Shown here piece by piece: positions 21,890 to 63,204 of a DNA stretch of 64,000 bases. The notes under the pieces were generated by a model. The model did no database searches. It saw only the letters and a program-made list of their open reading frames with translations, and had not been told where the DNA came from. The translations under genes were made by a program, and so were the position numbers. The stretch spans positions 6,062,001-6,126,000 of the forward strand of contig NZ_JAVDYB010000001.1 in NCBI RefSeq assembly GCF_031458235.1, in the 5' to 3' direction. The DNA comes from Catenuloplanes atrovinosus (lineage in GTDB: Bacteria > Actinomycetota > Actinomycetes > Mycobacteriales > Micromonosporaceae). Within the stretch, counting starts at the first letter, position 1; each line of letters starts with the position of its first letter.

Positions 21890-21899
21890 GATCTTGTTT

Positions 21900-21967
21900 C
21901 CCGCTTCCGGCGTGGTGGCGATCCGCATGCTCCCGCGGGCACCGGTCGTCGCTGGCGCTCCTCCCTG
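21900..21967 (+). repeat. Dispersed 3'-end repeat, copy A
   Basis: Begins CCCGCTTCCGGCGTG 10 nt after the stop of the upstream plus-strand gene. The last 45 nt (21923-21967) are identical to copy D at 62827-62871. It contains three short palindromes in a row: GCATGC, CCCGCGGG and ACCGGT. Confidence 0.85.
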
Positions 21968-22049
21968 CCGGTCCCGCGGGCGGCCGGTGCACCACCCACG
22001 CCGCGGCCTCCGTTCCGGCGGGAACACCACCTGGTGGCGAGCGTTCCGC

Positions 22050-22079
22050 CCACCGCCGCCGGACCGGCTTGCCGGCGGT
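22050..22079. repeat. Hairpin between repeat copies A and A-prime
   Basis: CACCGCCG and CGGCGGTG at its two ends can pair. It lies in the 204-bp interior separating two inverted copies of the dispersed repeat. No gene is visible in 21890-22302. Confidence 0.55.
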
Positions 22080-22171
22080 GTGATTCCGCGCGCCACGCAA
22101 GCCGACCCGCCACGATCGCCGCGTGATCTCCCCGGCCACGCCGGAACCGGCTCCGACGCCGCGAGCGGAGC

Positions 22172-22248
22172 GGAGCGCCAGCGGAGTCGTAGCCCGCGGC
22201 GAGGTTTGCCCGCGGGAGCATGCGGAACCGGGTCACGCCGGAAGCGGG
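22172..22248 (-). repeat. Dispersed repeat, inverted copy A-prime
   Basis: Read on the minus strand it runs CCCGCTTCCGGCGTG, a variable 12 nt, then CGCATGCTCCCGCGGGC, and ends near CGCTGGCGCTCC. It is the inverted partner of copy A and lies 54 nt after the stop of the minus-strand gene ending at 22303. Confidence 0.8.
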
Positions 22249-22302
22249 AAAATCGGGGTCCGGGGGTGGCACAGCGCCCGCGGAAGCGGGAGGGAAGGGC
22301 CG

Positions 22303-22554
22303 CTAGTTGTGGTTCGGTGGGACGTCGGGGATGAGGACCTCGCCGTAGGAGGGGTTGTTGGAGGCCGCGAGCGCCAGCAGGGCGTGCACGTGGGCGGCCG
22401 CGATGTGGTTGGCGTTGGCCTGGAGGTGGGCGGGGTTGCCCTCGTCGCCGGGCTTGGCCTGGGTCACCCACGCGGTTCGGTCGGCCTCGTAGCCGGCGCG
22501 GCCCAGCAGCTTCTCGGCCACGCGGTAGTGTTCGTCGCCCGTCATGGGAACCAT
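22303..22554 (-). CDS. Small conserved hypothetical protein
   Basis: 83 residues from the ATG at 22554 (GGGGAC-type ribosome site); an ATG three codons later is possible, while the longer frame to 22599 overlaps the degV stop. Sequence features: DEHYRVAEKLLGRAGYEADR, then a helix rich in Ala/His (ANANHIAAAHVHALLALA). Soluble and acidic. I do not recognise a characterised family. Downstream of degV by 41 nt, probably the last gene of that unit. Confidence 0.6.
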   Translation of the reverse strand: MVPMTGDEHYRVAEKLLGRAGYEADRTAWVTQAKPGDEGNPAHLQANANHIAAAHVHALLALAASNNPSYGEVLIPDVPPNHN

Positions 22555-22595
22555 GCTCACGTCCCCGGGTTGCAGATGGCGGCGAATTCCGCAAA

Positions 22596-23417
22596 TCACC
22601 GCCGGTGCATCACGGTGCAGATGGCGCCGGGGCCGAGGTGGGCGCCGACCACCGCGCCGATCTCGGTGACGTGTCTCTCGCGCAGGCGGGGGCCGAGCCG
22701 GGCGGCGATGCGGGACAGCAGTTCGGCGGCCCGGTCGGGCGCGGCCAGGTGGTGCACGGCCAGGTCCGCGTCGCCGTCGCCGGCGGCGTCCACGGTCAGG
22801 TCGGCGAGCCGGGCCAGCGCGCGCCCGGCCGTGCGCACCTTGTCCCGCACCACGATGGCGCCGTCCGAGACGCGCAGGATGGGCTTGACCGACAGCGCGG
22901 TGCCGACCAGCGCGGACGCTGCCCCGATCCGCCCGCCGCGGCGCAAAAAGTCGAGCGTGTCCACGTAGAACAGCGAGGTGGTGCGCTCGACCGACGTCTG
23001 CGCGGCCTTGGCGGCCTCGTCGAGGTCCGCGCAGCCGGCGGCGGCGAGCGCGGCGAAGCCGGTGGCCATGCCGGCCGACCGGGAGTCGATCACGCGGACC
23101 GCGTCGCCGAACGGCGCGGCGGCCAACTGGGCGGCCTCGACCGTGCCGGAGAGCCGGGCGGAGAGGTGCACGGAGACGACGCCGGTGGCGCCGCCGTCCA
23201 GCAGCCGGCGGTACGCCTCCGCGAAGCGCTCCGGCGCCGGCCGGGAGGTGGTGACCGGGACTCGCCGGTCGCGCAGCATCCGGGCCAGCTCGTCCGGCGG
23301 CAAACCGGGCACTTCGGGCAGCTCACGGTCGCCGACCACGACGTGCAACGGCACGACCGTGAGCCCGTCCGTGTCCGGCAGGTACGCCGTGGAGTCCGTG
23401 ACGACCGCGACTGACAT
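22596..23417 (-). CDS. DegV-family fatty-acid-binding protein
   Basis: 273 residues from ATG 23417, which lies 7 nt after a TACCGT -10 box; the GTG three codons upstream falls inside that box and is rejected. Signature blocks: VAVVTDSTAYLP, TSRPAPERFAEAYRRLLD (TSQPS-type), SVHLSARLSGT and VIDSRSAGMATGF. DegV/FakB proteins bind fatty acids and in Firmicutes present them to FakA; no FakA is in the window. In actinobacteria the gene commonly sits near comEA and rsfS, as here. Confidence 0.93.
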   Translation of the reverse strand: MSVAVVTDSTAYLPDTDGLTVVPLHVVVGDRELPEVPGLPPDELARMLRDRRVPVTTSRPAPERFAEAYRRLLDGGATGVVSVHLSARLSGTVEAAQLAAAPFGDAVRVIDSRSAGMATGFAALAAAGCADLDEAAKAAQTSVERTTSLFYVDTLDFLRRGGRIGAASALVGTALSVKPILRVSDGAIVVRDKVRTAGRALARLADLTVDAAGDGDADLAVHHLAAPDRAAELLSRIAARLGPRLRERHVTEIGAVVGAHLGPGAICTVMHRR

Positions 23418-23424
23418 GCCGGGC

Positions 23425-23430
23425 ACGGTA
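23425..23430 (-). promoter_or_regulatory. -10 box for leaderless degV mRNA
   Basis: TACCGT on the minus strand with 7 nt to the ATG at 23417, identical in box and spacing to the one before the DUF4870 gene (5063). Confidence 0.5.
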
Positions 23431-23445
23431 ACGCATGCGGGCCGA

Positions 23446-23928
23446 TCAGGCCGGTTTCACGGACTCCACCTGGAGCGGCGTGCCCTGCTGGCAGGTGCTC
23501 ATCAGGTCCTGGGCGAGCGTGCCGGTGACGGTCACCCGGGCCCCGACCCGGGCCATCGTCTGGTCGCCGCCGATCAGCAGGTACGACGCGCGGCCGTCCG
23601 AGATCAGCCGGCAGCCGGGCTCGACGCCGGCGGTCACCTCGCCGGTCACGGTGATCTCCAGCGGCTTGCCCGACTTGCCGGTCATATCCGGCGGCGTCTC
23701 GATCGGCAGCCCCGGCTCGGCCGGCCCACCGGGCACCGCCGAGGGTCCGGAGTCCGCGGCGCTGGGCGAGACCGAGGCCGCGGGTGAGACCGAGACCGCG
23801 GGTGAGACCGAGACCGCGGGCGAGGCCGACGGCGCCCCGGACTCGGTCGACGACGGGGAGGACGCGCATGCCGCCACCGAGAGCAGGGCGGCGGCCGCGA
23901 CGAGAAGGGAGAACCGGCGCATGGTCAT
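23446..23928 (-). CDS. Lipoprotein with Ser/Pro/Val repeat linker
   Basis: 160 residues. A signal sequence ends in the lipobox LSVAAC (Cys about 21), so the mature protein is lipid-anchored outside the membrane. The linker repeats VSVSPA/ASVSPS several times, then a compact domain from about 88 (LEITVTGEVTAGVEPGC ... YLLIGGDQTMARVGARVTVT) looks like a small beta-barrel of OB type. Two Cys in the mature domain may form a disulphide. Function unknown. Lies between the phosphatase and degV genes. Confidence 0.7.
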   Translation of the reverse strand: MTMRRFSLLVAAAALLSVAACASSPSSTESGAPSASPAVSVSPAVSVSPAASVSPSAADSGPSAVPGGPAEPGLPIETPPDMTGKSGKPLEITVTGEVTAGVEPGCRLISDGRASYLLIGGDQTMARVGARVTVTGTLAQDLMSTCQQGTPLQVESVKPA

Positions 23929-23965
23929 GATGAGTGGGACGTTACCGGCCCGCGCCGGGTTCCGC

Positions 23966-24595
23966 TCAGACCGGCGCGGGGATCGCCTTCTCCGGCCACG
24001 GCCCCACGTTGTGCGCGCGCAACTGCCAGCCCCGGTTCGGCGTGTCGACCAGCTCGGTCCAGTGACAGTTCTGCAGCGGGCGGATCGCCGACATCACGTC
24101 CGACGGCCAGCCCAGCACGTCACCGAAGCCCTGCCGCGCGGCGCCGCCGTGCGTGGCGACCACGACGACCTCACCGGGGTGCCGCTCGGCGATCTCGCGT
24201 AGCGACTCGCCGACCCGCTTGCCGACGTCGTCGTTGCGCTCGACCTCGGCGCCGACGTCCGGATCGCCGCCGCGCCACCGCGCGAACGCCTCCGGGTGGG
24301 CCTCGGCGATCTCCGGGTCGGTCAGGCCCTGGAACAGCCCGTAGTGCCGCTCCCGCAGTCGCGGGTCCTCGGTCACGGGCAGTTTCACCAGCGTGGCCAG
24401 CGCGTCCGCGGTGTGCCGGGCGCGCAGCAGATCGCTGGAGTAGATCGCGGACGGCTCCAGACCGGCGATGAGTCGCGCGGCGGTGGCGGCCTGCGAACGG
24501 CCGAGATCGTTCAGCGGCACGTCGGTCTGCCCCTGGACGCGGCCCGCCGCGTTCCAGTCGGTGTTGCCGTGCCGCCAGATGATCAGTCTGGTCAC
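23966..24595 (-). CDS. Histidine phosphatase (phosphoglycerate mutase-like) family protein
   Basis: 209 residues from GTG 24595, which overlaps the rsfS stop by 4 nt. Catalytic motif IIWRHGNTDWN (RHG, phospho-His) near the N-terminus, IYSSDLLRARHTADAL, the acid Glu in RERHYGLFQG and the second His in VVATHGGAARQGF. Broad-specificity phosphatase type; the actinobacterial gene next to rsfS is often annotated as a glucosyl-3-phosphoglycerate phosphatase, which I cannot confirm. Confidence 0.88.
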   Translation of the reverse strand: MTRLIIWRHGNTDWNAAGRVQGQTDVPLNDLGRSQAATAARLIAGLEPSAIYSSDLLRARHTADALATLVKLPVTEDPRLRERHYGLFQGLTDPEIAEAHPEAFARWRGGDPDVGAEVERNDDVGKRVGESLREIAERHPGEVVVVATHGGAARQGFGDVLGWPSDVMSAIRPLQNCHWTELVDTPNRGWQLRAHNVGPWPEKAIPAPV

Positions 24596-25011
24596 GCCGC
24601 GGAACCCGCGCCCGCCTCGGCGTCGACCAGGTCGCGGTCGACGAACGGGACGATCGGGCAGTCCTTCCACAGGCGGTCGAGCGCGTAGAACTCGCGCTCC
24701 TCGGAGTGCTGGACGTGCACGATGATGTCGTTGAAGTCCAGCAGGACCCAACGACCGGATCGTTCACCCTCCTTGCGGACCGGCTTCGCCTTCTCCGGCA
24801 GCTTGAGCAGCTCCTCCTCGATCGCGTCCACGATCGCGAGCACCTGCCGCTCGTTCGGCGCGGAGGCGATCACGAAGGCGTCGGTGATGACGAGCTGGTC
24901 GCCGACGTCGATGACGACGACGTCCTCGGCCTTCTTGTCGGCGGCGGCTTGAGCGGCGGTCAGGGCCAGCTCGAGGGCGCGCTCGGGTACCGTCACCCGG
25001 GCTCCTTCCAT
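24592..25011 (-). CDS. rsfS: Ribosomal silencing factor RsfS
   Basis: 139 residues. The Iojap/RsfS fold shows KAEDVVVIDVGDQLVITDAF, SAPNERQVLAIVDAIEE, GRWVLLDFNDIIVHVQ and EEREFYALDRLWKD. RsfS binds L14 on the 50S subunit and blocks subunit joining during starvation. The N-terminal few residues before VTVPERALEL may not be translated (an alternative GTG lies there). It follows nadD by about 87 nt, the usual neighbour. Confidence 0.95.
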   Translation of the reverse strand: MEGARVTVPERALELALTAAQAAADKKAEDVVVIDVGDQLVITDAFVIASAPNERQVLAIVDAIEEELLKLPEKAKPVRKEGERSGRWVLLDFNDIIVHVQHSEEREFYALDRLWKDCPIVPFVDRDLVDAEAGAGSAA

Positions 25012-25098
25012 GGGTACAGCAACAACCGTTCCAGGGTCTCACAACCGAGGGTCGATCGTCTCCTCACTTCATCCCCAGATCGGACAGAGGGGGACAAA

Positions 25099-25695
25099 CT
25101 ACCCAGCGTACAGGCCTCGTTTGGCGATGTACTGCACCACACCGTCCGGGACCAGGTACCAGACCGGCTTGCCGGCCACCACGCGCGCGCGGCAGGCGGT
25201 CGACGAGATCGCCATCGCCGGCACCTCGACCAGGCTGACCGCGTCCTCCGGCAGGTGCTCGTTCGACAGCTCGAACCCCGGTCGGGTGACGCCGACGAAC
25301 CGGGCCAGCGCGAACATCCGCTCCGCGTCCTTCCAGGAGAGCATCTTCGCCACCGCGTCCGCGCCGGTGATGAAGAACAGCTCCGCCTCCGGCCCGTAGA
25401 TCGCACGCAGGTCACGCAGCGTGTCGACGGTGTAGGTCGGACCGGGCCGGTCGATGTCGACGCGGCTGACCGTGAAGCGCGGGTTGGACGCGGTCGCGAT
25501 CACGGTCATCAGGTAGCGGTCCTCGGCCGGGGTGACCGCCTGCCGCCCCTTCTGCCAGGGCTGCCCGGTCGGGACGAAGACCACCTCGTCCAGCCCGTAC
25601 CGGTCCGCGACCTCGCTGGCCGCGACCAGGTGACCGTTGTGGATCGGGTCGAACGTGCCGCCCATGATGCCGATCCGCCGCCCAGGTTCCGCCAC
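25099..25695 (-). CDS. nadD: Nicotinate-nucleotide adenylyltransferase
   Basis: 198 residues. Nucleotidyltransferase motif [15 protein letters not shown] and the C-terminal ISSTACR (ISSTxxR) are both intact. NadD joins ATP and nicotinate mononucleotide into deamido-NAD in NAD synthesis. First gene of a nadD-rsfS-phosphatase run in the order typical of actinobacteria. Confidence 0.96.
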
Positions 25696-25760
25696 TGAAT
25701 GATCTTCCCTCGCGACACGCCGTCCGGCAAACCGTCCAGGACCTTCGAGATCAAAGGCAG

Positions 25761-25789
25761 CGAGGGTACGGACGGCGTCCGCACCCTCG
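25761..25789 (-). terminator. Hairpin after pepN
   Basis: CGAGGGT pairs with ACCCTCG and CGGAC with GTCCG around a GGC loop, with one mismatch. It lies 18 nt after the pepN stop; a short CTTTG follows on the minus strand. Confidence 0.65.
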
Positions 25790-25806
25790 TCGCCGGAAAT
25801 CCTTCG

Positions 25807-28320
<2,514 letters not shown>

Positions 28321-28455
28321 CGGACCATCCTCCCCGCTCCGGCCCCGGCGGCAACTCCGGGTAACCTGTATCCCGCGATGTGACGTGGCGCACGCGGGCC
28401 CGGTCACATCCGTCGAGCACCGATCCCCCGCAATCCCAGAACCCAGGGAGACCTC

Positions 28456-28683
28456 ATGACCACGCCTCACCCCAAGGGCGACTTCGACCTCTCCCGCGCG
28501 GTGTGGCAGTCGGCCGGGCCGGGCGAGGGCGGCGACGGAAGCTCCGTCGAGGTCGCCTTCGTCGACGACCTGATCGGCATGCGCAACGGCGCCGACCCGG
28601 ACGGTCCCGTCCTGGTGTTCACCCAGGCCGAGTGGGACGCGTTCGTCGAGGGCGCCAAGGACGGCGAGTTCGACCTGGAGTGA
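28456..28683 (+). CDS. DUF397 protein
   Basis: 75 residues with the DUF397 pattern: SSVEVAFVDDLIGMRNGADP then GPVLVFTQAEWDAFVEGAKD. GGGAG ribosome site 5 nt before the ATG. Such small proteins usually pair with an XRE-type helix-turn-helix regulator gene (BldB-like or Wsp systems in Streptomyces development); no such partner is adjacent, so this is an orphan copy. Confidence 0.88.
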   Translation: MTTPHPKGDFDLSRAVWQSAGPGEGGDGSSVEVAFVDDLIGMRNGADPDGPVLVFTQAEWDAFVEGAKDGEFDLE

Positions 28684-28698
28684 CCCGGCCCGGGCCGC

Positions 28699-29358
28699 TC
28701 AGGCGATCCCGCAGGTCGCGCCGTTGACGGTGCACAGCCGGGGCGGCGCGTCCTCACCCGTGCGGTTGAACTGCAGCCGCAGCGAGACGGACGCGCCCGC
28801 GCTCAGCGGCACGGTGCTGATGAACGTGTAGAGCGCGCCGTCCCGGCTCATCGTCGCCTGCGGCGCGGACTCCACCCAGAACGTGTGCAGCTCGCCCACG
28901 TTGTCCTCGAACTCGATCTGCAGCGACCAGTGCCGTACCCCCGTGGTGGGGTTGGTTATCAGCACCTCGGCGATGAACGAGTCGCCGTAGGAGTTCAGCA
29001 CGCGATAGGTGCCGGAGGCGTCGGTCAGTTGCCGGCCGGGCGCCTCCGTGCCCGCGATCAGTGAGGTCTCGCCCACGCCGCTCGGCGTCGGGACGCCGAG
29101 ACCCGGCACCCGGGACAGCTCCGGCGAGCCCGGGCCCGGGTCGGACGGCGTGACCGGCTCATCGGCGCCGGACGGCGTGGCGGCCTGCTGCGCGGCGTCG
29201 AACGGCACCAGCGTCAGCGCGGCCACCAGCAGCCCGGTCACCACCACGACCACGCCCAGGACCGGCACCCACGGCACCGACCGGACCCGACCGACCAGCG
29301 CCGTCCGCCGCCCACCGTGCCTCGCCGGCATGCGCTCCCCATCCACGTGTTCCGTCAC
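28699..29358 (-). CDS. Membrane-anchored CBM2-like protein
   Basis: 219 residues. A cytoplasmic basic stretch, one membrane helix (VPWVPVLGVVVVVTGLLVAAL), a Pro/Ser/Gly linker at about 60-115 and a C-terminal beta domain resembling a bacterial CBM2: YRVLNSYGDSFIAEVLITN, VRHWSLQIEF, and SVSLRLQFNRTG, closing with two Cys (LCTVNGATCGIA) that could form a disulphide. CBM2 aromatic binding residues are only partly kept, so cellulose binding is uncertain. GTG start with a TACCCT box 9 nt upstream. Convergent with the DUF397 gene, 15 nt apart. Confidence 0.65.
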   Translation of the reverse strand: MTEHVDGERMPARHGGRRTALVGRVRSVPWVPVLGVVVVVTGLLVAALTLVPFDAAQQAATPSGADEPVTPSDPGPGSPELSRVPGLGVPTPSGVGETSLIAGTEAPGRQLTDASGTYRVLNSYGDSFIAEVLITNPTTGVRHWSLQIEFEDNVGELHTFWVESAPQATMSRDGALYTFISTVPLSAGASVSLRLQFNRTGEDAPPRLCTVNGATCGIA

Positions 29359-29409
29359 GACCGAGTGAGGGTAGCCGGACGGGAGCCCGGATGAACATGG
29401 CGCGTCCCG

Positions 29410-29424
29410 GATCGAGCCTCGATC
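29410..29424. repeat. 15-bp perfect palindrome in a gene gap
   Basis: GATCGAG-C-CTCGATC. It lies between the stop of the gene at 29447 and the start at 29358, where it could act as an operator for the downstream gene or as a short hairpin. Confidence 0.5.
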
Positions 29425-29446
29425 GTGGACGGTCGCCGGCGCGTGC

Positions 29447-39424: not shown

Positions 39425-40492
39425 ATGAAGGCTCTGATGCTGGCCGGCGGGCGGGGCACCCGGCTGCGGCCGCTCACGCACACGTCCGCGAAGCAGTTGT
39501 TCCCGGTCGCGAACAAGCCGGTGATCTTCTACGGGCTGGAGGCGGTGCGCGAGGCGGGCATCACCGAGGTCGGCGTGATCACCGGCGAGACCGGCGCGGA
39601 GGTGCGGGCCGCGCTGGGCGACGGGTCCCGGTTCGGCCTGCGGATCACGTACATCCCGCAGGACGCGCCGCGCGGGCTCGCCCACTGCGTGCTGATCGCC
39701 CGGGAGTTCCTCGGCGACGACGACTTCGTCATGTACCTCGGCGACAACTTCCTGCTCGGCGGCGTGCAGGAGTTGGTCTCCGCGTTCCGGGCCGGCGACT
39801 ACGAGGCGCAGATCCTGCTCGCGGCCGTGGACGACCCGCGCTCGTACGGCGTGGCCACGCTGGGCCGCAGCGGCGAGATCGTGGGCCTGACCGAGAAGCC
39901 AGCCGAGCCGGAGAGCGACCTGGCGATCGTCGGCGTCTACCTGTTCAGCCCCGCGATCCACGAGGCGGTGCGCGCGATCGGCCCGTCCGCGCGCGGCGAG
40001 CTGGAGATCACGGACGCGGTGCAGTGGCTGATCGCGCACGGCCACCGCGTGCACTCCCACCTGGTCAGCGGCTACTGGAAGGACACCGGCCGGGCGCGGG
40101 ACATCCTGGAGTGCAACCGGATGGTGCTGGAGTCGGTCGAGCCGCGGCTGGACGGCACGGTGGCCGGCCGTACCGAGATCATCGGCCGGGTGGTGCTGGA
40201 GGCCGGCGCCGTGGTGGAGGACTCGGTGCTGCGCGGCCCCATCGTGATCGGCACCGGCACCAAGATCCTCCGGTCGTACGTGGGCCCGTTCACCTCGATC
40301 GCGGACAACTGCATGCTGGAGGACGCGGAGATCGAGTACTCGATCGTCTTCGACAACGCCTCGGTCCGCGGCGTCTCCCGGATCGGCGAGTCGATCATCG
40401 GGCGGGACGCGCGGGTGCTGCCCGCACCGCGTACCCCCGCGGCCCATCAACTGATCGTGGGCGACCACAGCACCGTCCGGCTGCGCGCCTGA
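39425..40492 (+). CDS. rmlA: Glucose-1-phosphate thymidylyltransferase, long form
   Basis: 355 residues from ATG 39425; the upstream open frame is antisense of the DUF2344 gene. Nucleotidyltransferase signature MKALMLAGGRGTRLRPLTH, then SAKQLFPVANKPVIFYGLEA, the metal Asp in MYLGDNFLLGG, and a C-terminal left-handed beta-helix from about 245 (IVIGTGTKILRSYVGPFTSI). The long form with beta-helix is the type found in antibiotic and surface deoxysugar clusters. It makes dTDP-glucose. First gene of a two-gene operon with the methyltransferase; opens the accessory island. Confidence 0.92.
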   Translation: MKALMLAGGRGTRLRPLTHTSAKQLFPVANKPVIFYGLEAVREAGITEVGVITGETGAEVRAALGDGSRFGLRITYIPQDAPRGLAHCVLIAREFLGDDDFVMYLGDNFLLGGVQELVSAFRAGDYEAQILLAAVDDPRSYGVATLGRSGEIVGLTEKPAEPESDLAIVGVYLFSPAIHEAVRAIGPSARGELEITDAVQWLIAHGHRVHSHLVSGYWKDTGRARDILECNRMVLESVEPRLDGTVAGRTEIIGRVVLEAGAVVEDSVLRGPIVIGTGTKILRSYVGPFTSIADNCMLEDAEIEYSIVFDNASVRGVSRIGESIIGRDARVLPAPRTPAAHQLIVGDHSTVRLRA

Positions 40493-41220
40493 TGCGCGGC
40501 GCCGACATCCGCTCGTCCGCCGCGGTCGAGGAGCGGCACTGGTGGTACCGCGAGCGCCGCGCGCTGCTCGCCCGCGAGCTTCGACGGCTGCGCAACGATC
40601 CACCCCAGCGCCAGGCCATCGAGATCGGCGCCGCCGGTGGCGGAAACTGCCTGGTCATGCGCGATTTCGGCTACCGGGTGCTGGCCACCGAGCAGCTGCC
40701 GGAGGGCGTGGAGATCGCGCGCGCCCGCGGCCTGGACGCGATCCGGGCGGACGCGCGCGATCTGCCGGTCGAGTCCGGCGGTCACGATCTGCTGGTCGCG
40801 TTCGACGTGCTGGAGCACATCGCGGAGGACGACCTCGCCGCCGCCGAGATCCACCGGGTGCTCCGTCCCGGCGGGACCGCGCTCATCGCCGTACCCGCGG
40901 ACATGCGGCTGTGGTCGTCCTTCGACGACCTCAGCGGCCACGTCCGCCGCTACGACCGCGCCGGCCTGCGCGCACTGATCGAGGGAGCCGGCCTGCGCGT
41001 CGACGCGCTGTGGAGCTGGAACGTGCTGCTCCGCCCCGCCGTCGCGCTGCGCCGCACCGCCACCGCCCGCCCGAGCGAGACCGCGCTCCGGCACGACGTG
41101 ACCGCCGTTCCGCCCCTGCTCAACACGCTGCTCGGCGCCGTCGTCCGCCTCGAACGCCACCTTCCCACCGGTGGGCTTCCCGGGGTCTCGCTGTTCCTAC
41201 GGGCCCATAAACCCTTCTGA
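40492..41220 (+). CDS. Class I SAM-dependent methyltransferase
   Basis: 242 residues; the ATG overlaps the rmlA stop by one base (TGATG). N-terminal AAVEERHWWYRERRALL is typical of sugar-cluster methyltransferases. Motif I AIEIGAAGGGNCL, then DARDLPVESGGHDLLVAFDV and LEHIAEDDLAAAEIHRVL are intact; a C-terminal hydrophobic part (LLRPAVALRR, LLNTLLGAVVRLER) may bind the membrane. It probably methylates a sugar or glycolipid made by this island, which is inference. The dispersed repeat begins 10 nt after its stop. Confidence 0.8.
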   Translation: MRGADIRSSAAVEERHWWYRERRALLARELRRLRNDPPQRQAIEIGAAGGGNCLVMRDFGYRVLATEQLPEGVEIARARGLDAIRADARDLPVESGGHDLLVAFDVLEHIAEDDLAAAEIHRVLRPGGTALIAVPADMRLWSSFDDLSGHVRRYDRAGLRALIEGAGLRVDALWSWNVLLRPAVALRRTATARPSETALRHDVTAVPPLLNTLLGAVVRLERHLPTGGLPGVSLFLRAHKPF

Positions 41221-41230
41221 AGGCGGATCT

Positions 41231-41297
41231 CCCGCTTCCGGCGTGCCCACTCCCGTCCGCTCCCGCGGGCACCGGTCGTCGCCGGCGCTCCTCCCTG
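41231..41297 (+). repeat. Dispersed repeat, copy B
   Basis: Starts CCCGCTTCCGGCGTG 10 nt after the methyltransferase stop and ends GCGCTCCTCCCTG. It differs from copy A mainly in the middle (the GCATGC palindrome is lost) and continues into CAGATCCG, as copy D does. Confidence 0.82.
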
Positions 41298-41537
41298 CCA
41301 GATCCGTGCACTCACCAAACCCCACAGCGCCCACCCGCCGCCCGACGCCGGCTCGATCGGCCCGCGGCACGCGGGCGCGTCCATCGCACGTCCCCACGGC
41401 CCCTCGATCGGGTGGCCGGCAGCACGTGCGCGCCCAGCGTCCGAAATATGCCCTATAGGAGCCACCGTCCAGTGGCCATGGATACATGGTCGCTGTTCAG
41501 GGGGCTCGGAACGGCGACCACGTATCCGTCGCGGACG
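41298..41537. other. Non-genic gap after copy B
   Basis: Beyond the repeat I see no gene, only an AT-richer patch near 41440-41520 with GTATCC/GGATAC-type inverted pieces (ATGGATACAT at 41478 and CGTATCC near 41521). Confidence 0.35.
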
Positions 41538-49000: not shown

Positions 49001-50971
<1,971 letters not shown>

Positions 50972-54153: not shown

Positions 54154-54242
54154 CCGGCCACCACGCGACCGGCAGGCAGCCCGGCTGCCGCCCCGACCAC
54201 CCACCCCTGACCGGAGTAAACGCTCCGCCTCCTCGGCCGGCC

Positions 54243-54287
54243 GGTGCCCGCTGCGAGCATGCGGACCGCAACCCCGCCGGAAGCGGG
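54243..54287 (-). repeat. Dispersed repeat, copy C
   Basis: Read on the minus strand: CCCGCTTCCGGCG, then GGGTTGCGGTCCGCATGC, TCGCAGCGGGCACC. It begins 11 nt after the stop of the PlsC gene (54299) and lies between two convergent genes. Confidence 0.8.
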
Positions 54288-54298
54288 AACATGATTTC

Positions 54299-54967
54299 CT
54301 AAGAGGTCTTCGGCGGTGCGTAGTTCGGGACGTACTCCTGGCCGGTCAGCTTCTGGATCTCGGCCATGACCTCGTCCGTTATCGCGCGCAGGCCGAGCGT
54401 GTCGGTGGCGCGGCCGGTGAAGTCCATCGGCTTGCCGAAGCGGATCACCGCGCCGCTCGGCCGGAACTTCGGCAGTCGCTGGCCGATCGGCTGCATCCGG
54501 TCGGTGCCGAGCACGCCCACCGGGATGACCGGCACGCCGGCCATGGTGGCGAGGCGGGCGACGCCGGTGCGCCCCTTGTAGAGGCGGCCGTCCGGGGAGC
54601 GGGTGCCCTCCGGGTAGACGACCACCTGGCCGCCGCTCTGGAGCACCGGGATGGCCGCGTCGAACGCGGCGAGCGCGGCGCGTCCGCCGGCCCGCTCGAC
54701 CGGGATCGCGCCGAGCGCCTGGAGCAGGTGCTTGACGAAGAGGCCGCGCGGGCCGGTGCCCTTGAAGTACTCCGACTTGGCCCAGAACGCGAGGTGGCGC
54801 GGGACGACGACCGCGGAGAGCACCTCGTCCGCGACGGAGAGGTGGTTGCTGGCGAAGATGAGGCCGCCGGAGTCCGGGATGTTCTCGCGGCCCTCGACCT
54901 CCGGCTGCCAGATCAGGTTCAGGAGCGGACCGACCGTGACCTTCCCGAACGAATAGAGCGGTGGCAA
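54299..54967 (-). CDS. 1-acyl-sn-glycerol-3-phosphate acyltransferase-like (PlsC family)
   Basis: 222 residues from TTG 54967, chosen because AGGAGG lies 8 nt upstream. Acyltransferase motif NHLSVADEVLSA (HX4D), then VERAGGRAALAAFD, the phosphate-binding YPEGTRSPDGRLYKG and the PVIPVGVLGTD block. It transfers an acyl chain to lysophosphatidic acid in phospholipid synthesis, or to a related glycolipid. The in-frame start at 55087 lacks a ribosome site. Downstream of ileS by about 125 nt. Confidence 0.85.
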   Translation of the reverse strand: MPPLYSFGKVTVGPLLNLIWQPEVEGRENIPDSGGLIFASNHLSVADEVLSAVVVPRHLAFWAKSEYFKGTGPRGLFVKHLLQALGAIPVERAGGRAALAAFDAAIPVLQSGGQVVVYPEGTRSPDGRLYKGRTGVARLATMAGVPVIPVGVLGTDRMQPIGQRLPKFRPSGAVIRFGKPMDFTGRATDTLGLRAITDEVMAEIQKLTGQEYVPNYAPPKTS

Positions 54968-55033
54968 CCCTCGACCCTCCTGCGACGTGAGCCCCGGAGC
55001 CGGGGCGATCACACGGTAGCCGACGGATGCCGA

Positions 55034-55079: not shown

Positions 55080-55091
55080 AGGAACACACGG

Positions 55092-58000: not shown

Positions 58001-58199
58001 AGTGCGGGAGGCCGTTGGCGAACGGTGGGCCGTCGTAGAAGACGTATTCGTTCTTGCCGTCATCCCCGGCCGGCCTGGCCTCGACGGAGGCCTCGAAGGT
58101 CTTGTCGGACGCCCAGTAGTCCAGGACGCCGCGCTCGACCGCCGGCAGGTCCGGGCTGGCCGGCACGCCGGGCGTCGCAGCGTTCTTGGGGTACGCCAT
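55092..58199 (-). CDS. ileS: Isoleucyl-tRNA synthetase
   Basis: 1035 residues from ATG 58199. HIGH-type motif [16 protein letters not shown] motif [15 protein letters not shown], the CP1 editing domain and two CWRCETPL zinc-like motifs are present, and a long C-terminal region ends with the [15 protein letters not shown] tail. This is the eukaryote-like IleS2 layout, associated in other bacteria with mupirocin insensitivity (not proven here). It charges tRNA-Ile. Preceded by a T-box leader and followed by a strong terminator. Confidence 0.97.
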
Positions 58200-58202
58200 C
58201 GG

Positions 58203-58420
58203 TGGTCACTTCCTACTCGCAGCCTGCTCACTCAAGGTCTGCGAGGACGAGCCAAGGCCCGCGGTACCACCCCGCTTGACGACCGAGGATCCGGTCGCCC
58301 GCTCATTGCCGGCTGTGACGGGCCGTCCCGTCCGGTTCTACTCGGCCCCCAGAGGGGGCTTTTCTTCCGGAGGCTCCCCGGTGATGGCCGGATCGACGCC
58401 TTGCTGCCCTCCAGAGTACC
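58203..58420 (-). ncRNA. T-box riboswitch leader of ileS
   Basis: The T-box core GGGGTGGTACCGCGG is at 58259-58273 on the minus strand, which pairs with the tRNA acceptor end. An ATC specifier triplet is at 58383-58385 (GGCCATCACCGGGGAGCC), reading tRNA-Ile. No T-run is visible; instead CTCGCAG (58239-58245 on the minus strand) can pair with CTGCGAG (58216-58222) just before the AGGAAG ribosome site, so control is probably at translation initiation, as in actinobacterial ileS leaders. Uncharged tRNA-Ile would raise ileS expression. Boundaries approximate. Confidence 0.85.
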
Positions 58421-58501
58421 CACCCTCCCCCGCCGGCCTCATCCGAGTTACCGGTGGTTCGGCCGGACCCGAATTCGTTTCTCGCCGTGCCCCGCACGCT
58501 C

Positions 58502-58507
58502 TAGGTT
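58502..58507 (+). promoter_or_regulatory. -10 box for leaderless ABC ATPase mRNA
   Basis: TAGGTT with 7 nt to the ATG at 58515; no ribosome site upstream. Confidence 0.5.
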
Positions 58508-58514
58508 CGGGCGC

Positions 58515-59510
58515 ATGGAGAACGCGATCGAGGCTGAGGGGCTGCGGCGTACCTACCGCAGCCGCACGGGGTGGCTGAGACCGAGGACCACCGAGGTGCA
58601 CGCGGTGCGCGGCGTGGACCTGACGGTGGGCCGGGGCGAGCTGTTCGGCCTGCTCGGGCCGAACGGGGCCGGCAAGACCACCACCATCAAGATGCTGAAC
58701 ACGCTGCTCATCCCGTCCTCCGGTACCGCCCGGATCTGCGGTTTCGACGTCGAGCGGCAGACCCGTGAGGTGCGCAGGCGGATCGGGTACGTGTTCGGCG
58801 GCGACCGGGGCCTCTACGAGCGCCTCTCCGCGCTGGACAACCTGCGGTACTTCGCGGAGCTGTACGGCGTGCCCGCGCGCGAGCAAAAGCGCCGGATCGC
58901 CGAGCTGCTGGAGCTGGTCAAGCTGACCGGCCGGGAGCGGGAGCGGGTGGAGGGGTATTCGCGCGGCATGCGCCAGCGGCTGCACATCGCGCGCGGTCTG
59001 CTCCACTCCCCCGAGGTGATCTTTCTGGACGAGCCGTCGATCGGCGTGGACCCGGTGGCCGCCCGCGAGCTGCGCGCCACCGTGGCGAACCTGGCCGCGA
59101 CCGGCACCACCGTGCTGCTGACCACGCACTACATGGCCGAGGCGGACGAGCTCTGCGACCGGATCGCGGTGATCTCGGACGGGGAGATCCAGGCGCTGGG
59201 CACGCCCGCGGAGCTGCGCCACCGGGCGGACGGGCGGCGCGTGCTGGAGATCGAGGCCTACGGCGTACCCGCGGACGCTCTTGAAGATCTTCAAAACCTC
59301 CCGGGGGTACGCGAGGCGGCGGTCGAGGAGCGCGGCCAGGTGCAGGTGCTGACCGTGCAGTCGGACGCGGACGTGGACGTGCAGCAGGACGTGCTGCGCC
59401 GGCTGGACGGGGTGCGCCTGGGCCGGGTCACGTCCCGCGAGCCCACGCTGGAGGACGCGTACGTGGCGATCATCGCGGCGGCCGGCAAGCGGGAGCCGGT
59501 GATCGTGTGA
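58515..59510 (+). CDS. ABC-2 exporter ATP-binding protein
   Basis: 331 residues from ATG 58515; the enormous upstream frame is antisense of ileS. Walker A GPNGAGKTTT, signature YSRGMRQRLHIARG (a variant of LSGGQ), Walker B VIFLDEPSIGVD, H-loop LTTHYMAEADEL. C-terminal extension (VLEIEAYGVPADALEDLQNL, then SREPTLEDAYVAI) is typical of the DrrA/NatA-type exporters. Powers export together with the two permeases that follow; the substrate is unknown. Coupled to the next gene by a 4-nt overlap. Confidence 0.93.
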   Translation: MENAIEAEGLRRTYRSRTGWLRPRTTEVHAVRGVDLTVGRGELFGLLGPNGAGKTTTIKMLNTLLIPSSGTARICGFDVERQTREVRRRIGYVFGGDRGLYERLSALDNLRYFAELYGVPAREQKRRIAELLELVKLTGRERERVEGYSRGMRQRLHIARGLLHSPEVIFLDEPSIGVDPVAARELRATVANLAATGTTVLLTTHYMAEADELCDRIAVISDGEIQALGTPAELRHRADGRRVLEIEAYGVPADALEDLQNLPGVREAAVEERGQVQVLTVQSDADVDVQQDVLRRLDGVRLGRVTSREPTLEDAYVAIIAAAGKREPVIV

Positions 59511-60277
59511 GAAGCCTGCGCATGCTGGTGCTCGGGATGCTGTTCCACATGAAGCACGTGTCCCGGTCGCCGTTCGACCTCGCGGTGTTCGTGGTGGTGC
59601 CGGTGGTGCAGGCCACGCTCGCGGTGTACCTGTTCCGCGCGTCCGCGGAGCCGCAGAAGCTGCTTCAGGCCGCGGTCGGCGCCGGGATGATGGGCGTCTG
59701 GTCGTCCGTGCTGTTCGGCGCCGGCGGCGCGATCCAGTCCCAGCGCTGGCAGGGCACGCTGGAGATGCTGATGCTGGCGCCCCGGCGGCCCGTCATGATC
59801 TTCCTGCCGATCACGCTGGCCCAGGGCGCGATCGGCAGCTACGCGCTGCTGGCCACGCTCGTCTGGGCCCGCGTGCTCTACGGCATCCGGCTGGACTTCG
59901 CGCGCCCGTGGGCGTTCCTGGTCACCGCGCCGGTCACGGTGCTGTCGCTGGGCGCGTTCGGCATCCTGCTGGCGTCGCTGTTCGTGCTGCTGCGCCACGC
60001 GAACGCACTGCAGAACGCGCTGGAGTACCCGGTCTGGCTGCTCTCCGGCATGCTGCTGCCGATCTCGTCGCTGCCCGCGTGGACCGGCCCGCTCGCGGCC
60101 GTGCTCCCGACCACCTGGGGTGCGCGGGCGATGCGCGAGGCGACCGCGGGCGGCGCGGTCTGGCCGTCGCTCGCCTGGTGCGCCGGGATCAGCGCGATCT
60201 GCCTCGCGCTCGGCGCACTGTCCCTGGTCCACGTGGAGCGGCGGGCCCGCGCGGCGGCCACGCTGGCGCTGGCATGA
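59507..60277 (+). CDS. ABC-2 type permease 1
   Basis: 256 residues; the GTG overlaps the ATPase stop by 4 nt. Six helices by hydrophobicity, opening with SPFDLAVFVVVPVVQATLAV, and the ABC-2 signature around LEYPVWLLSGMLLPISSLPA. It pairs with the second permease as a heterodimeric exporter channel. Confidence 0.88.
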   Translation: MRSLRMLVLGMLFHMKHVSRSPFDLAVFVVVPVVQATLAVYLFRASAEPQKLLQAAVGAGMMGVWSSVLFGAGGAIQSQRWQGTLEMLMLAPRRPVMIFLPITLAQGAIGSYALLATLVWARVLYGIRLDFARPWAFLVTAPVTVLSLGAFGILLASLFVLLRHANALQNALEYPVWLLSGMLLPISSLPAWTGPLAAVLPTTWGARAMREATAGGAVWPSLAWCAGISAICLALGALSLVHVERRARAAATLALA

Positions 60278-60339
60278 GCGAGCGAATCATCGGCTCAGCA
60301 CCGACCACAACGAAACCGCGGCGCGAAGGAGAGTCCGGC

Positions 60340-61128
60340 ATGAGGGGCACGCTCCGGCTGCTCGGGATGGGCAGCGTGATCGCGTACCGGGCGCTGTTCA
60401 ACTGGACGACGCCGCCGGTCTTCATCGGGTCGCTGCTGGTCGGGCCGCTCTTCCAGCTGATCTTCTTCGCCTACGTGGGCCGGCAGCTGTCGGTCGGCGA
60501 CGACCGGTTCTACATCGTCGGCAACGCGGTGCTGGCCGCCGCGTGGACGTGCGTGTTCGGCGGCACGATGGCGATCGGCAACGAGCGCCGCTTCGGCACG
60601 CTCGGCCACGTGCTGCTGTCCCCGCGCAGCCGCACGCTGATCTTCCTGGGCCGGGCCACGCCGTACGCGCTGAACGGCCTGTTCGTGGCCGCGGTGATCC
60701 TGGCCCTCGGCGCGGGCCTGCTCGGGCTGCACATCCCGGCGTCCGCGATCCCGCTGCTGGCGCTCTGCCTGGCCGCGGGCGCGGTGGCGTCCGCGTTCTT
60801 CGGGCTGACGCTGGGCGCGCTCGGGCTGCGGTTCCGCGACATCTGGGTGATCTCGAACGTGACGTCCGCGCTGATGGTGCTGCTCACCGGCGTGAACGTG
60901 CCGCTCGACCAGCTGCCGCCGGTCCTGCGCGCGATCGGGACGGTGCTGCCGATCACGCACTCGGCCGCGGCGGCCCGGGACGCGGCGGGCGGTGCGCCGA
61001 TCGCCGCGGTGGCGCCGGACCTGCTGATCGAGGCCGGCATCGCGCTCGCGTACGCCGCGCTCGCCGCCGTGCTGCTGCGGATCTTCGAGGCGGAGTCGCG
61101 GCGGCGCGCCTCACTGGACACGCTGTGA
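60340..61128 (+). CDS. ABC-2 type permease 2
   Basis: 262 residues from ATG 60340 (AAGGAG 8 nt upstream); ATG 60274, which overlaps the previous stop, would add 22 polar residues (MSERIIGSAPTTTKPRREGE...) and is the alternative. Helices include VFIGSLLVGPLFQLIFFAYV, LFVAAVILALGAGLLGLHIP and VTSALMVLLTGVNVPLDQLP. Ends directly at a 30-bp palindrome. Second half of the exporter channel. Confidence 0.85.
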   Translation: MRGTLRLLGMGSVIAYRALFNWTTPPVFIGSLLVGPLFQLIFFAYVGRQLSVGDDRFYIVGNAVLAAAWTCVFGGTMAIGNERRFGTLGHVLLSPRSRTLIFLGRATPYALNGLFVAAVILALGAGLLGLHIPASAIPLLALCLAAGAVASAFFGLTLGALGLRFRDIWVISNVTSALMVLLTGVNVPLDQLPPVLRAIGTVLPITHSAAAARDAAGGAPIAAVAPDLLIEAGIALAYAALAAVLLRIFEAESRRRASLDTL

Positions 61129-61158
61129 GAGCCGGGGCGCCGCGCGGCGCCCCGGCTC
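61129..61158. terminator. Perfect 30-bp palindrome between convergent genes
   Basis: GAGCCGGGGCGCCGC and its exact complement GCGGCGCCCCGGCTC with no spacer, starting at the base after the permease stop and ending 7 nt before the phoD stop. A bidirectional terminator without T-runs. Confidence 0.85.
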
Positions 61159-61165
61159 ACCTCGG

Positions 61166-62698
61166 TCACGGCTTCGGCAGCGTCCTGCGGAACAGCGACT
61201 TCCCGTCGATGTCGCGCAGGTCCACCGTGAACGCGCCGGTCCGCGCGTCGATGTTGACCTCGCCGAAGTGCTGGAACCCGGCGTACGGCGACGTGTTCGC
61301 GGCCGGCGGCGCGTTCACGAAGACCGCCTCCGGGCCGAACGTGCCGTCCAGCGCGTTCGGCCCGAACGCGCCCGCGTGCGCCGGGCCGGAGACGAACTCC
61401 CAGAACGGCGTGAAGTCCTGCACCGCGGCCCGCGCCGGGTCGTAGTGGTGCGCGGCCGTGTAGTGCACGTCCGCGGTCAGGAACACGATGCCGCTGACCT
61501 TCGCCCGGTGCGCCTCGCGGAGCACGGTGGCGAACTCCAGCTCGCGGCCGAGCGGCGCGCCCGGGTCGCCCTGGGCCACGCCCTCCTGAGCCGCCGCGCC
61601 GTCCGGCACGACCAGGCCGATCGGCAGGTCGTTGGCGATCACCTTCCAGGTGGCCCGGGACCGCTTGAGGCCGTCGATCAGCCACCGCCGCTGCGCCGCG
61701 CCGAGCAGGCCGCGGTTCGGGTCGGCGTAGGTGTTGCCGTCGTTGGGGTCCTTGAGCGTGCGCATGTCCAGCACGAACACGTCCAGCATCGGGCCGTACG
61801 ACAGCTTGCGGTAGATCGGGCCGGACAGGTCGGGCAGCGGCAGGTACTCGAAGTACGCCTGCCGGGAGCGGCGGGCCAGCACGTCCACCCGCTTCTCCGT
61901 GTACCGGGCGTCGTCCAGGATCTCGCCCGGGTACCAGTTGTTGGTGACCTCGTGGTCGTCCCACTGGTTGATCTGCGGCACCTCTGCCACGAACCGCCGG
62001 TACGGGTCGTCCAGCAGGTTGTAGGCGAACTGGCCGCGGTACTCGTCCAGCGTCTCGGCCACCTTGGACTTCGCCTCGGTCACCACGTTCGTCCACACGG
62101 TCCCGTCCGGCAGCGTCACGCTGGCGCTGATCGGGTTGTCCGCGTACACGGTGTCGCCGCTGTGCAGGAAGAAGTCGGGCCGGCGGTCGCGCATCGCGGA
62201 GAAGATCTTCATGCCGCCGAACGCCGGGTTGATGCCCCAGCCCTGACCGGCCACGTCACCGGTCCACACGAACCGGATGTCGTCGCGCCCGGTCGGCGCC
62301 GTGGTCAGCGAGCCGGTCAGCGGCGCGCTCGCCTGCCGGTCGCCCTCCACCCGCACCCGGTAGTAGACCTTGGAGCCGGACGGCAGGTCACGCAGCCGCA
62401 CCTTGCCGGTGAAGTCCGAGCCCGCGGTCAGCACCGGCCCGCGCAGCACCCGCGCGCCCCGGAAGTCCGGCCGCCGGCTGACCTCCACCAGCATCCGCCC
62501 GGCCCGGTCCGAGCGGGTCCAGACGATCGCGGAGTTCGCGGTCGCGTCGCCGCTCTGCACGCCGTGCGTCAGCACCGGCCGTCCGCCCGGGTGGAACGCG
62601 GGGGCCGCGCTCGCGCCGCCCGCCAGCAGTTGCCCGCCGATAAGTCCCGCACCCGCGCCGAACCCGGCCCGGATGAGTCCACGCCTGTCGATAGTCAT
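61166..62698 (-). CDS. phoD: Alkaline phosphatase D (PhoD family)
   Basis: 510 residues. The N-terminus is a Tat signal (MTIDRRGLIRAGFGAG then hydrophobic to SAAP). PhoD N domain at about 40-140, then the metallophosphatase domain with FLHSGDTVYAD, NQWDDHEVTNNWYPG and VFLTADVHYTAAHH that bind Fe/Ca. Secreted through Tat and acting on phosphodiesters and wall phosphates during phosphate limitation. I see no clear PHO box. Convergent with the ABC operon. Confidence 0.93.
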   Translation of the reverse strand: MTIDRRGLIRAGFGAGAGLIGGQLLAGGASAAPAFHPGGRPVLTHGVQSGDATANSAIVWTRSDRAGRMLVEVSRRPDFRGARVLRGPVLTAGSDFTGKVRLRDLPSGSKVYYRVRVEGDRQASAPLTGSLTTAPTGRDDIRFVWTGDVAGQGWGINPAFGGMKIFSAMRDRRPDFFLHSGDTVYADNPISASVTLPDGTVWTNVVTEAKSKVAETLDEYRGQFAYNLLDDPYRRFVAEVPQINQWDDHEVTNNWYPGEILDDARYTEKRVDVLARRSRQAYFEYLPLPDLSGPIYRKLSYGPMLDVFVLDMRTLKDPNDGNTYADPNRGLLGAAQRRWLIDGLKRSRATWKVIANDLPIGLVVPDGAAAQEGVAQGDPGAPLGRELEFATVLREAHRAKVSGIVFLTADVHYTAAHHYDPARAAVQDFTPFWEFVSGPAHAGAFGPNALDGTFGPEAVFVNAPPAANTSPYAGFQHFGEVNIDARTGAFTVDLRDIDGKSLFRRTLPKP

Positions 62699-62803
62699 GC
62701 ACGTGGTCTATCCGCCGAACCTTGCGCATCGTTGACCAACCGCGAAATCCCGCGCGAAACCCGCCGCAACCCGGGCAAGACCCGCTTCGCGGATATCGAT
62801 ATT

Positions 62804-62871
62804 CCCACTCCCGGCCTGCCCGGGTCCCGCATGCTCCCGCGGGCACCGGTCGTCGCTGGCGCTCCTCCCTG
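62804..62871 (+). repeat. Dispersed repeat, copy D
   Basis: CCCACTCCCGGCCTG, then CCGCATGCTCCCGCGGG and CGCTCCTCCCTG; 45 nt (62827-62871) identical to copy A. Unlike A-C it does not follow a gene's stop codon. Confidence 0.85.
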
Positions 62872-62946
62872 TCAGATCCGTGGCCGGTCGCGAGAAAACC
62901 CCGCCCGGGTTCTCGCCGAGGGGTTGCCGGACCCCGCGGATCTGAC
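62871..62946. repeat. Nested inverted repeats beside copy D
   Basis: GTCAGATCCG (62871-62880) and CGGATCTGAC (62937-62946) form a perfect 10-bp pair enclosing GCGAGAA / TTCTCGC (7 bp). This gives a two-tier hairpin. Confidence 0.6.
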
Positions 62947-63204
62947 GGGAAGCCCGGCCGCCGCAATGCCACTCAGCTTAAGTCGATCATGGCTTTGACT
63001 CGCGTCCTCGGCCGATGCCCGCCCGGCACCCGGGCCTCACGGCCAGGAGGCCGCATCACTCACCAGTGGACCACCCGGCGGTTCCGCGAGAACGGCACAC
63101 CGCCGCGCCGCGCATCCCCCGGCCGCGACAGCCACCGTCGATCTTGAGTACAGCCCGGCCCGGCCCGGGTGTCTCGCGGTGGGCGTCGGCGACTAAAGAT
63201 ACGT

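What the first reader, a model, noticed from the sequence alone, without database searches (positions are those of the whole stretch)
21890..62950. A dispersed 45-80 bp repeat that begins 10-11 nt after stop codons
Five copies (21900-21967 +, 22172-22248 -, 41231-41297 +, 54243-54287 -, 62804-62871 +) share CCCGCTTCCGGCGTG, a variable middle, CGCATGCTCCCGCGGGCACC and GCTGGCGCTCCTCCCTG. Copies A and D are identical over 45 nt although 41 kb apart. Copies A, B and C start 10, 10 and 11 nt after a stop codon, and always with the CCCGCTTCC end facing the gene; copy A-prime has the same orientation at 54 nt. Such fixed placement suggests a 3'-end function (terminator, mRNA-stability or end-processing signal) or a mobile repeat that inserts at gene ends. 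The three internal palindromes GCATGC, CCCGCGGG and ACCGGT are kept in A and D.
Basis: partly seen in the sequence, partly recalled or inferred. Interest (0 to 1): 0.72.

Follow-up and report, generated by a model that had tools for sequence, protein, structure and literature searches.

The report
Gene-end repeat family in Catenuloplanes bacteria
A short, structured piece of DNA, estimated at several hundred copies in this soil bacterium, sits in one fixed orientation just after the ends of genes, has relatives in other genera of its family, and behaves like an undescribed cousin of the REP elements of other bacteria.

Summary
The genome is a Catenuloplanes (Micromonosporaceae). In 1.20 Mb of it 129 copies were scored: 109 have the CCCGCTTCC end facing a stop codon, 71 start 4-30 nt after it, against 5.0 for random intergenic placement. 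When a copy lies 45-120 nt away, a hairpin often lies between (12 of 23). The same architecture and placement occur in other genera of the family (model hits in 15 of 44 genera, this one included). Hairpin stems covary. Gene ends are shared between own and C. japonicus, yet the sequences there are no more alike than random copies. No Y1/RAYT transposase in this genome, no Rfam match in the window; an IS4-family element entered two copies at the same position. Best reading: a REP-like element at the ends of transcription units, acting as a 3' boundary in the sense RNA and spread by copying. Function is inferred, not shown: window copies fold no better than shuffles and no T-run follows.

The parts
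21890..21986 (+). Copy A, subfamily 1: T-rich leader 21890-21899, head from 21900, core GCTCCCGCGGGCACCGGTCG, apical hairpin region, tail CTCCCTGCCGGTCCCGCGG. No such insert in the orthologous spacer of four other Catenuloplanes genomes.
22118..22252 (-). Copy A-prime, subfamily 2: same head, then AAACCTCG-[long covarying stem]-ACTCCGCTGGCGCTCCG-[stem]-TCGGAGCCGG. Faces the minus-strand gene stop at 22303 (54 nt).
41221..41313 (+). Copy B, subfamily 1, 10 nt after the stop of 40492-41220 (methyltransferase domain); the orthologous gene end carries an element in all five Catenuloplanes genomes (C. japonicus by eye only).
54158..54298 (-). Copy C, subfamily 1 with a longer apical module, 11 nt after the stop of the minus-strand acyltransferase gene at 54299; an element lies at the same place in G003 and G004, while G001 and G002 have a spacer of 11-18 nt.
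62802..62890 (+). Copy D, subfamily 1, between phoD-like (61166-62698 -) and ndk (63362-63787 -) genes; orientation opposite to that in the four relatives, probably flipped in this lineage.
   Evidence: the flip is an inference
62965..62990 (+). Sequence resembling the terminal repeat of the IS4-family element that is inserted in two other copies; possible remnant beside copy D.

Best explanation
A family-specific, REP-like end-of-transcription-unit element. Shown: about 90-140 bp, T-rich leader, conserved core, at least one covarying hairpin, in sense orientation directly after a stop codon or after a hairpin that follows the stop, most often between convergent genes. Inferred: it is read as RNA at the end of the transcript, where hairpin and conserved unpaired core act as a 3' boundary (halting run-on, or stopping exonuclease trimming at a fixed point), which insulates convergent neighbours; useful sites are kept for long times while copies are overwritten or re-seeded by other copies of the same genome. 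The copying machinery is unknown.
For: Placement: 109 of 129 face a stop, 71 of 129 at 4-30 nt, random maximum 15 in 2000 trials; 1 of 129 overlaps a called gene. 81 of 129 are in convergent spacers, which are 201 of 966 spacers in the held sequence; 12 of 69 convergent spacers with such copies hold two, on opposite strands. Other genera: 20 of 46 copies start 0-29 nt after a stop, random mean 2.6, maximum 9 of 2000 (assumes a 33-nt head). Covariation: subfamily-2 stem in 40 distinct arm pairs; covariation score above all 500 shuffles in two alignments. In the other-genus copies G.U outnumbers A.C 11 to 3 cells on the sense strand. 17 gene ends shared by own and C. japonicus, about 1 expected by my own estimate (71 x 109 / 8000 genes). 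After near copies 22 of 71 have a hairpin within 90 nt, against 114 of 240 after element-less stops (Fisher p 0.015).
Against: The five window copies fold no better than shuffles (z -1.44 to 0.19), and no T-run follows. In 12 of 23 copies at 45-120 nt a hairpin of 10 or more pairs lies before the element, 10 with a T-rich tail, so those may be little transcribed. On 187 Catenuloplanes copies the consensus fold was better for the antisense (-6.2) than the sense strand (-3.9 kcal/mol). Subfamily 2 shows no wobble asymmetry (G.T 14, A.C 12). The head helix rests mostly on unchanged or one-sided pairs and was not predicted by RNAalifold. 19 of 129 copies have the 5' end facing a start codon. No expression data were available.
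Confidence: 0.45

Rival explanations
1. A non-autonomous mobile element with no host function that is steered to T-rich stretches at the ends of transcription units (after stop codons or at the U-tract of terminators) by an enzyme not yet identified; the hairpins are what the enzyme recognises.
For: Site A is filled in own and empty in four relatives. Species-specific amplification: head variant CAGCG[TC]TGCTCCCG in 36 of 95 C. japonicus and 0 of 129 own copies; subfamily differs at 8 of 17 shared gene ends. A 68-nt copy is identical 807 kb away. T fraction 0.46-0.47 in the 10 nt before the element against 0.15 after element-less stops. T-tailed hairpins precede 10 of 23 distant copies against 21 of 240 element-less ends (Fisher p 5e-5). 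Wobble symmetry in subfamily 2.
Against: No Y1 (HUH) transposase match in this genome. The T-rich leader seems to come with the element (the empty site A has none, by eye), so it can hardly be the sole target. The sites of copies B and D are occupied in all five species, and the core is kept in genomes where only one to three copies were found.
Confidence: 0.35
2. A double-stranded DNA site (BIME-like) for gyrase or another DNA-binding protein, placed where transcription-driven supercoils meet between convergent genes.
For: Enrichment in convergent spacers; palindromic GCATGC, CCCGCGGG, ACCGGT in the Catenuloplanes consensus.
Against: Two of the three palindromes are not kept across genera; covarying hairpins with free sequence argue for a single-stranded form; the median stop distance is about the same in co-directional (16.5) and convergent spacers (18).
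Confidence: 0.12
3. An ordinary intrinsic terminator that happens to be repeated.
For: GC-rich, hairpin-forming, directly after the stop codon; near-class ends have fewer other hairpins downstream.
Against: A TTTT run follows in 1 of 101 subfamily-1 copies; window copies fold no better than shuffles; T-tailed hairpins already precede it in 10 of 23 distant copies.
Confidence: 0.06

Closest known systems
REP / BIME elements of E. coli
   Same: Dispersed, hairpin-forming intergenic repeats at gene 3' ends, many 1-20 nt from the stop codon (passages of PMC12306157); REP-targeting insertion sequences are known (recalled: IS1397, IS621).
   Different: Longer (90-140 bp), different sequence, conserved unpaired core, T-rich leader, free apical hairpin, no Y1/RAYT match in this genome, other phylum.
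GTAG- and CGTC-tagged REPs (PMC3733652, passages including parts of the abstract)
   Same: High-copy hairpin-forming repeats; the CGTC class also lacks a dedicated transposase.
   Different: Those are 20-40 bp palindromes with a tetranucleotide tag; here no GTAG end was seen, and CGTC stands before the hairpin only in one apical type.
MITE-like repeats such as RU/ERIC (PMC2759123 and PMC2229807, seen in a listing only)
   Same: Miniature, non-coding, mostly intergenic repeats.
   Different: No terminal inverted repeats noticed in solo copies; the inverted pair at 21.9-22.25 kb is two elements of different subfamilies facing their own genes.
Intrinsic terminators
   Same: Position at the end of the transcription unit.
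   Different: No T-run after the element; some copies lie behind a T-tailed hairpin.

Membership tests
REP (GTAG/CGTC superfamilies) | 20-40 bp palindrome with GTAG or CGTC tag at one end | tested here: not met
   By inspection: consensus is about 90 bp with a T-rich leader and no GTAG end; CGTC stands before the hairpin only in apical type TCGTCGC, not in TCGGCCG types or most other-genus copies
REP (GTAG/CGTC superfamilies) | RAYT/Y1 tyrosine transposase in the genome (GTAG class) | tested here: not met
   PF01797: 0 matches in own genome, rings in 5 of 14 control genomes; other genomes not searched
REP (general sense) | High-copy intergenic hairpin repeat near gene 3' ends | tested here: met
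MITE | Terminal inverted repeats and target-site duplication of its own | tested here: inconclusive
   No dedicated test; none noticed in the aligned copies, and at the one filled/empty comparison (site A) no clear duplication
Intrinsic terminator | Stable GC hairpin followed by a U-tract | tested here: not met
   TTTT after 1 of 101 and 0 of 28 copies; window copies fold no better than shuffles
Known Rfam family | Match above the gathering score | tested here: not met
   0 matches in the window; six further loci at E up to 1 give two miRNA-family matches, both far below their gathering scores

The most novel reading that the evidence does not exclude
A structured non-coding element of Micromonosporaceae that is delivered, or retained, only at the ends of transcription units in sense orientation by a transcript-coupled copying process that needs no known transposase, so that the same gene ends stay occupied across species while the letters are replaced genome-wide by lineage-specific versions.
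Probability: 0.2. Interest if true: 0.85.

Novelty: new variant of a known kind. Interest (0 to 1): 0.6.

Why it matters
To my knowledge little is known of how transcripts end, and how convergent genes are kept apart, in this antibiotic-producing family. A tagged set of about a hundred to several hundred gene ends per Catenuloplanes genome makes 3'-end function directly testable, gives a marker for transcription-unit ends, and offers a natural case of place-conserved, sequence-turned-over repeats whose copying enzyme is unknown.

Tried and rejected
Chance or compositional repeat: rejected. RAYT/HUH mobilisation in the present genome: no PF01797 match. MITE with terminal inverted repeats: suggested by the 357-bp pair at 21.9-22.25 kb and its 70-72% relatives, rejected when the two ends proved to be separate elements of two subfamilies, each facing its own gene. 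Pairing of the head CCCGC with GCGGG, and a basal GGCA/TGCC stem: no supporting covariation among the top column pairs. Antisense-strand RNA: the Catenuloplanes consensus fold favours it (-6.2 against -3.9), the other-genus wobbles point to the sense strand (11 G.U, 3 A.C cells), subfamily 2 is neutral; not settled, sense preferred because of placement. Single-sequence folding gave no signal in the window copies; one of its ten inputs (the L108 stretch) did not hold the intended element in sense orientation and is not used. Chromosome position: 4.0-5.15 Mb has few copies but is not at the antipode of dnaA (7.67 Mb), so a replication explanation was not pursued. Literature: the listings (most of them capped at 12-15 rows) and the empty results showed no description of such an element in Catenuloplanes or Micromonosporaceae; the library lacks most subscription papers. 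I saw passages of PMC12306157 and PMC3733652, all other papers as listings only.
Full report
What was claimed and what is there. All five are there, and a profile search of the window at E up to 0.01 returns exactly these five. With genes called from codon usage by my own script, the copies at 21900, 41231 and 54287 follow their genes by 10, 10 and 11 nt, the copy at 22248 by 54 nt, and the copy at 62804 faces a start codon. The copies at 21900 and 62804 share 45 identical nt.

Genome scale. The window is bases 6062001-6126000 of an 8.9-Mb single-contig genome. The genus is taken from a relative: G002 is of the same genus and its contig of 246133 bases matches in length a named Catenuloplanes japonicus contig. 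All five genomes held for the genus carry 93 to 195 exact copies of a 20-mer of the core, the reversed control 0. A 17-mer with up to two mismatches gives 196 places in own, reversed control 27. An exact 23-mer is in 116 stretches of the named collection, of which the 80 listed are all C. japonicus. I held 105 merged stretches of own (1.20 Mb), many chosen because they hold copies. A profile at E up to 0.01 gave 132 hits, of which 129 include the 5' end; three without it were dropped. In seven 20-kb probes outside a copy-poor region, some already known to hold a copy, there were 6 copies; in ten probes at 4.1-5.02 Mb there was 1 (two more probes laid over known copies, with 3 hits, are left out). 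This suggests several hundred copies in the genome, a rough estimate.

Placement. 19 face a start codon and 1 overlaps a called gene; 1 of the 19 lies between two divergent starts. 81 lie in convergent spacers, which are 201 of 966 spacers in the held sequence. Of 69 convergent spacers with such copies, 12 hold two, on opposite strands; the pair at 21.9-22.25 kb is one of these. In C. japonicus, using 80 of the 116 loci, 71 of 95 copies face a stop; the distances are broader, with 24 of 95 at 30 nt or less, and no random control was run.

A second class of distance. Of 23 own copies at 45-120 nt, 12 have a hairpin of 10 or more pairs between stop and element, 10 with a T-rich tail; element-less gene ends have such T-tailed hairpins in 21 of 240 (Fisher p 5e-5). 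In several of the printed examples the element begins within about 20 nt of the T-tract. None of the 71 near copies has a hairpin in between. After a near copy, 22 of 71 have a hairpin in the next 90 nt; after element-less stops, 114 of 240 (p 0.015). Hairpins as such are no more frequent before distant copies (12 of 23) than after element-less stops; it is the T-tailed kind that is enriched. So the element marks the end of the transcription unit: after the stop, or after a terminator if one is there. The 10 nt before CCCGC are T-rich (0.46-0.47 against 0.15).

Anatomy. Leader (T-rich, about 10 nt), head TCCCGCTTCCGGCGTGG..CCGCATGCTCCCGCGGGC, then one of at least three tails. Subfamily 1: ACCGGTCG-[short hairpin]-CTCCCTGCCGGTCCCGCGG. 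Subfamily 2: AAACCTCG-[stem]-ACTCCGCTGGCGCTCCG-[stem]-TCGGAGCCGG. A third, rarer tail is seen in L077 and L098. Longer apical modules replace the short hairpin in some copies, as in the window copy at 54158-54298. A TTTT run follows in 1 of 101 subfamily-1-like own copies and 0 of 28 others.

Structure. In subfamily 2, 40 distinct pairs of stem arms give 331 Watson-Crick, 14 G.T, 12 A.C and 98 other cells, including fully paired 13-bp arms with entirely different letters. In subfamily 1 plus other genera (33 sequences) the five apical pairs give a covariation score of 0.465 against 0.126 in shuffles, 0 of 500 as high, and lower scores in every slid version. Within Catenuloplanes this is largely one switch between two versions (170 against 49 copies). 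In 46 copies from other genera, head and apical helices give 91.0% paired cells and a score of 0.313 against 0.101, 0 of 500. In both calls two measures do not exceed shuffles: pairs with a change on both sides (3 against 3.0; 5 against 4.3) and further pair types (4 against 4.4; 10 against 9.6). The covariation lies mainly in the apical helix; the head helix has one pair with changes on both sides. RNAalifold on the same 46 finds three of the apical pairs and three invariant pairs, not the head helix. The structures were named after seeing the alignments. Single copies do not fold clearly better than shuffles: z -1.44 to 0.19 for the five window copies, -1.67 to -0.97 for three copies from other genera. 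As to the strand, G.U outnumbers A.C 11 to 3 cells on the sense strand in the other genera but not in subfamily 2, and the consensus fold of 187 Catenuloplanes copies is better for the antisense strand (-6.2 against -3.9).

Other genera. An exact 19-mer of the core is in 8 of 250 family genomes: the five Catenuloplanes and one copy in each of three others. By number alone those three single hits equal the reversed control, which has one hit in each of three genomes; what sets them apart is the full architecture around the core. A pattern with a free hairpin finds 10 of 200 genomes, the reversed control none. The covariance model R1 (33 sequences, 7 of them from three other genera) finds 41 of 200 genomes and 15 of 44 genera at E up to 0.01, at most 28 candidates scored per genome; hits near 0.01 may be chance, and ten genera, this one included, have a hit at 5e-6 or better. 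One other genus has up to 15 copies per genome. Of 55 loci from genomes outside Catenuloplanes (origins checked), read with a motif that includes the core, 2 did not fit and 48 distinct copies were read; their stems and heads differ. The 46 not overlapping a called gene and with an upstream gene were used: 35 face a stop (random mean 25.8) and 20 start 0-29 nt after it if the head is 33 nt long (random mean 2.6, maximum 9 of 2000). The gene caller was trained on Catenuloplanes. An order-level search with model R2 over 397 genomes in 85 genera found the element only in four Catenuloplanes and two other genomes of the family at E up to 0.001, with only 11 candidates scored per genome, so its absence elsewhere is weak evidence.

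Evolution of sites. In a syntenic block of five species (38 common genes, 15484 aa columns) the site of copy B is occupied in all five, four by the profile and C. japonicus by eye. The spacer of copy D is occupied in all five, but own has it in the other orientation. The site of copy C is occupied in three, site A only in own, and another site in two. At site A the relatives have convergent genes between overlapping and 42 nt apart, own has 413 bp. So sites are gained or lost, yet many persist. Between own and C. japonicus, 17 pairs of elements share the upstream gene (16 of them above 75% protein identity, one at 57%), among 71 and 109 stop-facing copies; about 1 would be expected by my own estimate with 8000 genes. 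At these 17 the sequences are no more alike than random own-japonicus pairs (0.829 against 0.816; 386 of 2000 permutations as high), the subfamily differs at 8, and a japonicus head variant is in 36 of 95 there and 0 of 129 here. By eye the leaders are lineage-specific too, although they score higher than random at shared sites (7.82 against 5.97, 0 of 500), which fits shared terminators. Between close species, site-specific letters are kept (by eye). So place is inherited while sequence is turned over within lineages, by conversion or by re-insertion; I cannot tell which.

Mobility machinery. PF01797 (Y1/RAYT) has no match in own genome, while it rings in 5 of 14 controls. A 1550-bp IS4-family element (Nterm_IS4, DDE_Tnp_1, NF033592) sits in two own copies at the identical position with the 10-bp repeat GGCACCGGTC on both sides, the two IS copies being identical. 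The element is thus a target for an IS, as REPs are (recalled). Because the sequence I hold is rich in element neighbourhoods, I cannot say that this IS goes nowhere else.

What it is and how it may work. The facts that must be explained together are: sense orientation; adjacency to the end of the transcription unit even in long spacers; convergent enrichment; a conserved core beside a free hairpin; persistence of sites; lineage-wide turnover of sequence. A 3'-boundary RNA element that spreads by copying explains most of them (0.45). A targeted mobile element without host function explains turnover and site A better, but orientation and persistence less well (0.35). A DNA-protein site is possible (0.12). 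A plain intrinsic terminator is unlikely (0.06).

Novelty. Rfam has no matching family in the window and only two matches far below their gathering scores in six further loci. Literature searches showed no description of it in the rows listed; the library is incomplete. It works like a REP in the general sense but fails the tag and RAYT tests, so I call it a new variant of a known kind.

Noticed in passing
L262 and L265 (own genome near 3,336,700-3,338,300 and 3,746,500-3,748,100): Two identical 1550-bp IS4-family insertion sequences sit at the same position inside two different element copies, flanked by the 10-bp repeat GGCACCGGTC; the element may be a preferred target of this IS.
   Followed up: partly
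window 62965-62990: Sequence like the end of that IS4-type element lies beside copy D, in a spacer longer than in the relatives (671 against 212-544 bp); copy D points opposite to theirs, suggesting a local rearrangement.
   Followed up: partly
own genome 4.0-5.15 Mb: Region almost free of the element: no exact 17-mer core listed between 4.00 and 5.15 Mb and 1 copy in ten 20-kb probes. dnaA is at 7.67 Mb, so this is not simply opposite the origin.
   Followed up: partly
own convergent spacers, e.g. window 21889-22303: In 8 of the 12 convergent spacers with two elements, one profile hit is full-length (subfamily-1-like) and the other covers only the head, as in subfamily 2; the pairing of subfamilies may not be random.
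   Followed up: no
window 54158-54230; G003 and C. japonicus copies: A second module (GAGCGTTYACTCCGGTCAGGGGTGGGTGG...) of about 40-60 nt replaces the apical hairpin in some copies in several species; it may be another small repeat nested in the loop.
   Followed up: no
window 14113-14645 and 5167-5452: Dense short direct-repeat arrays (spacings of 12-24 nt and 30 nt), probably low-complexity coding sequence.
   Followed up: no
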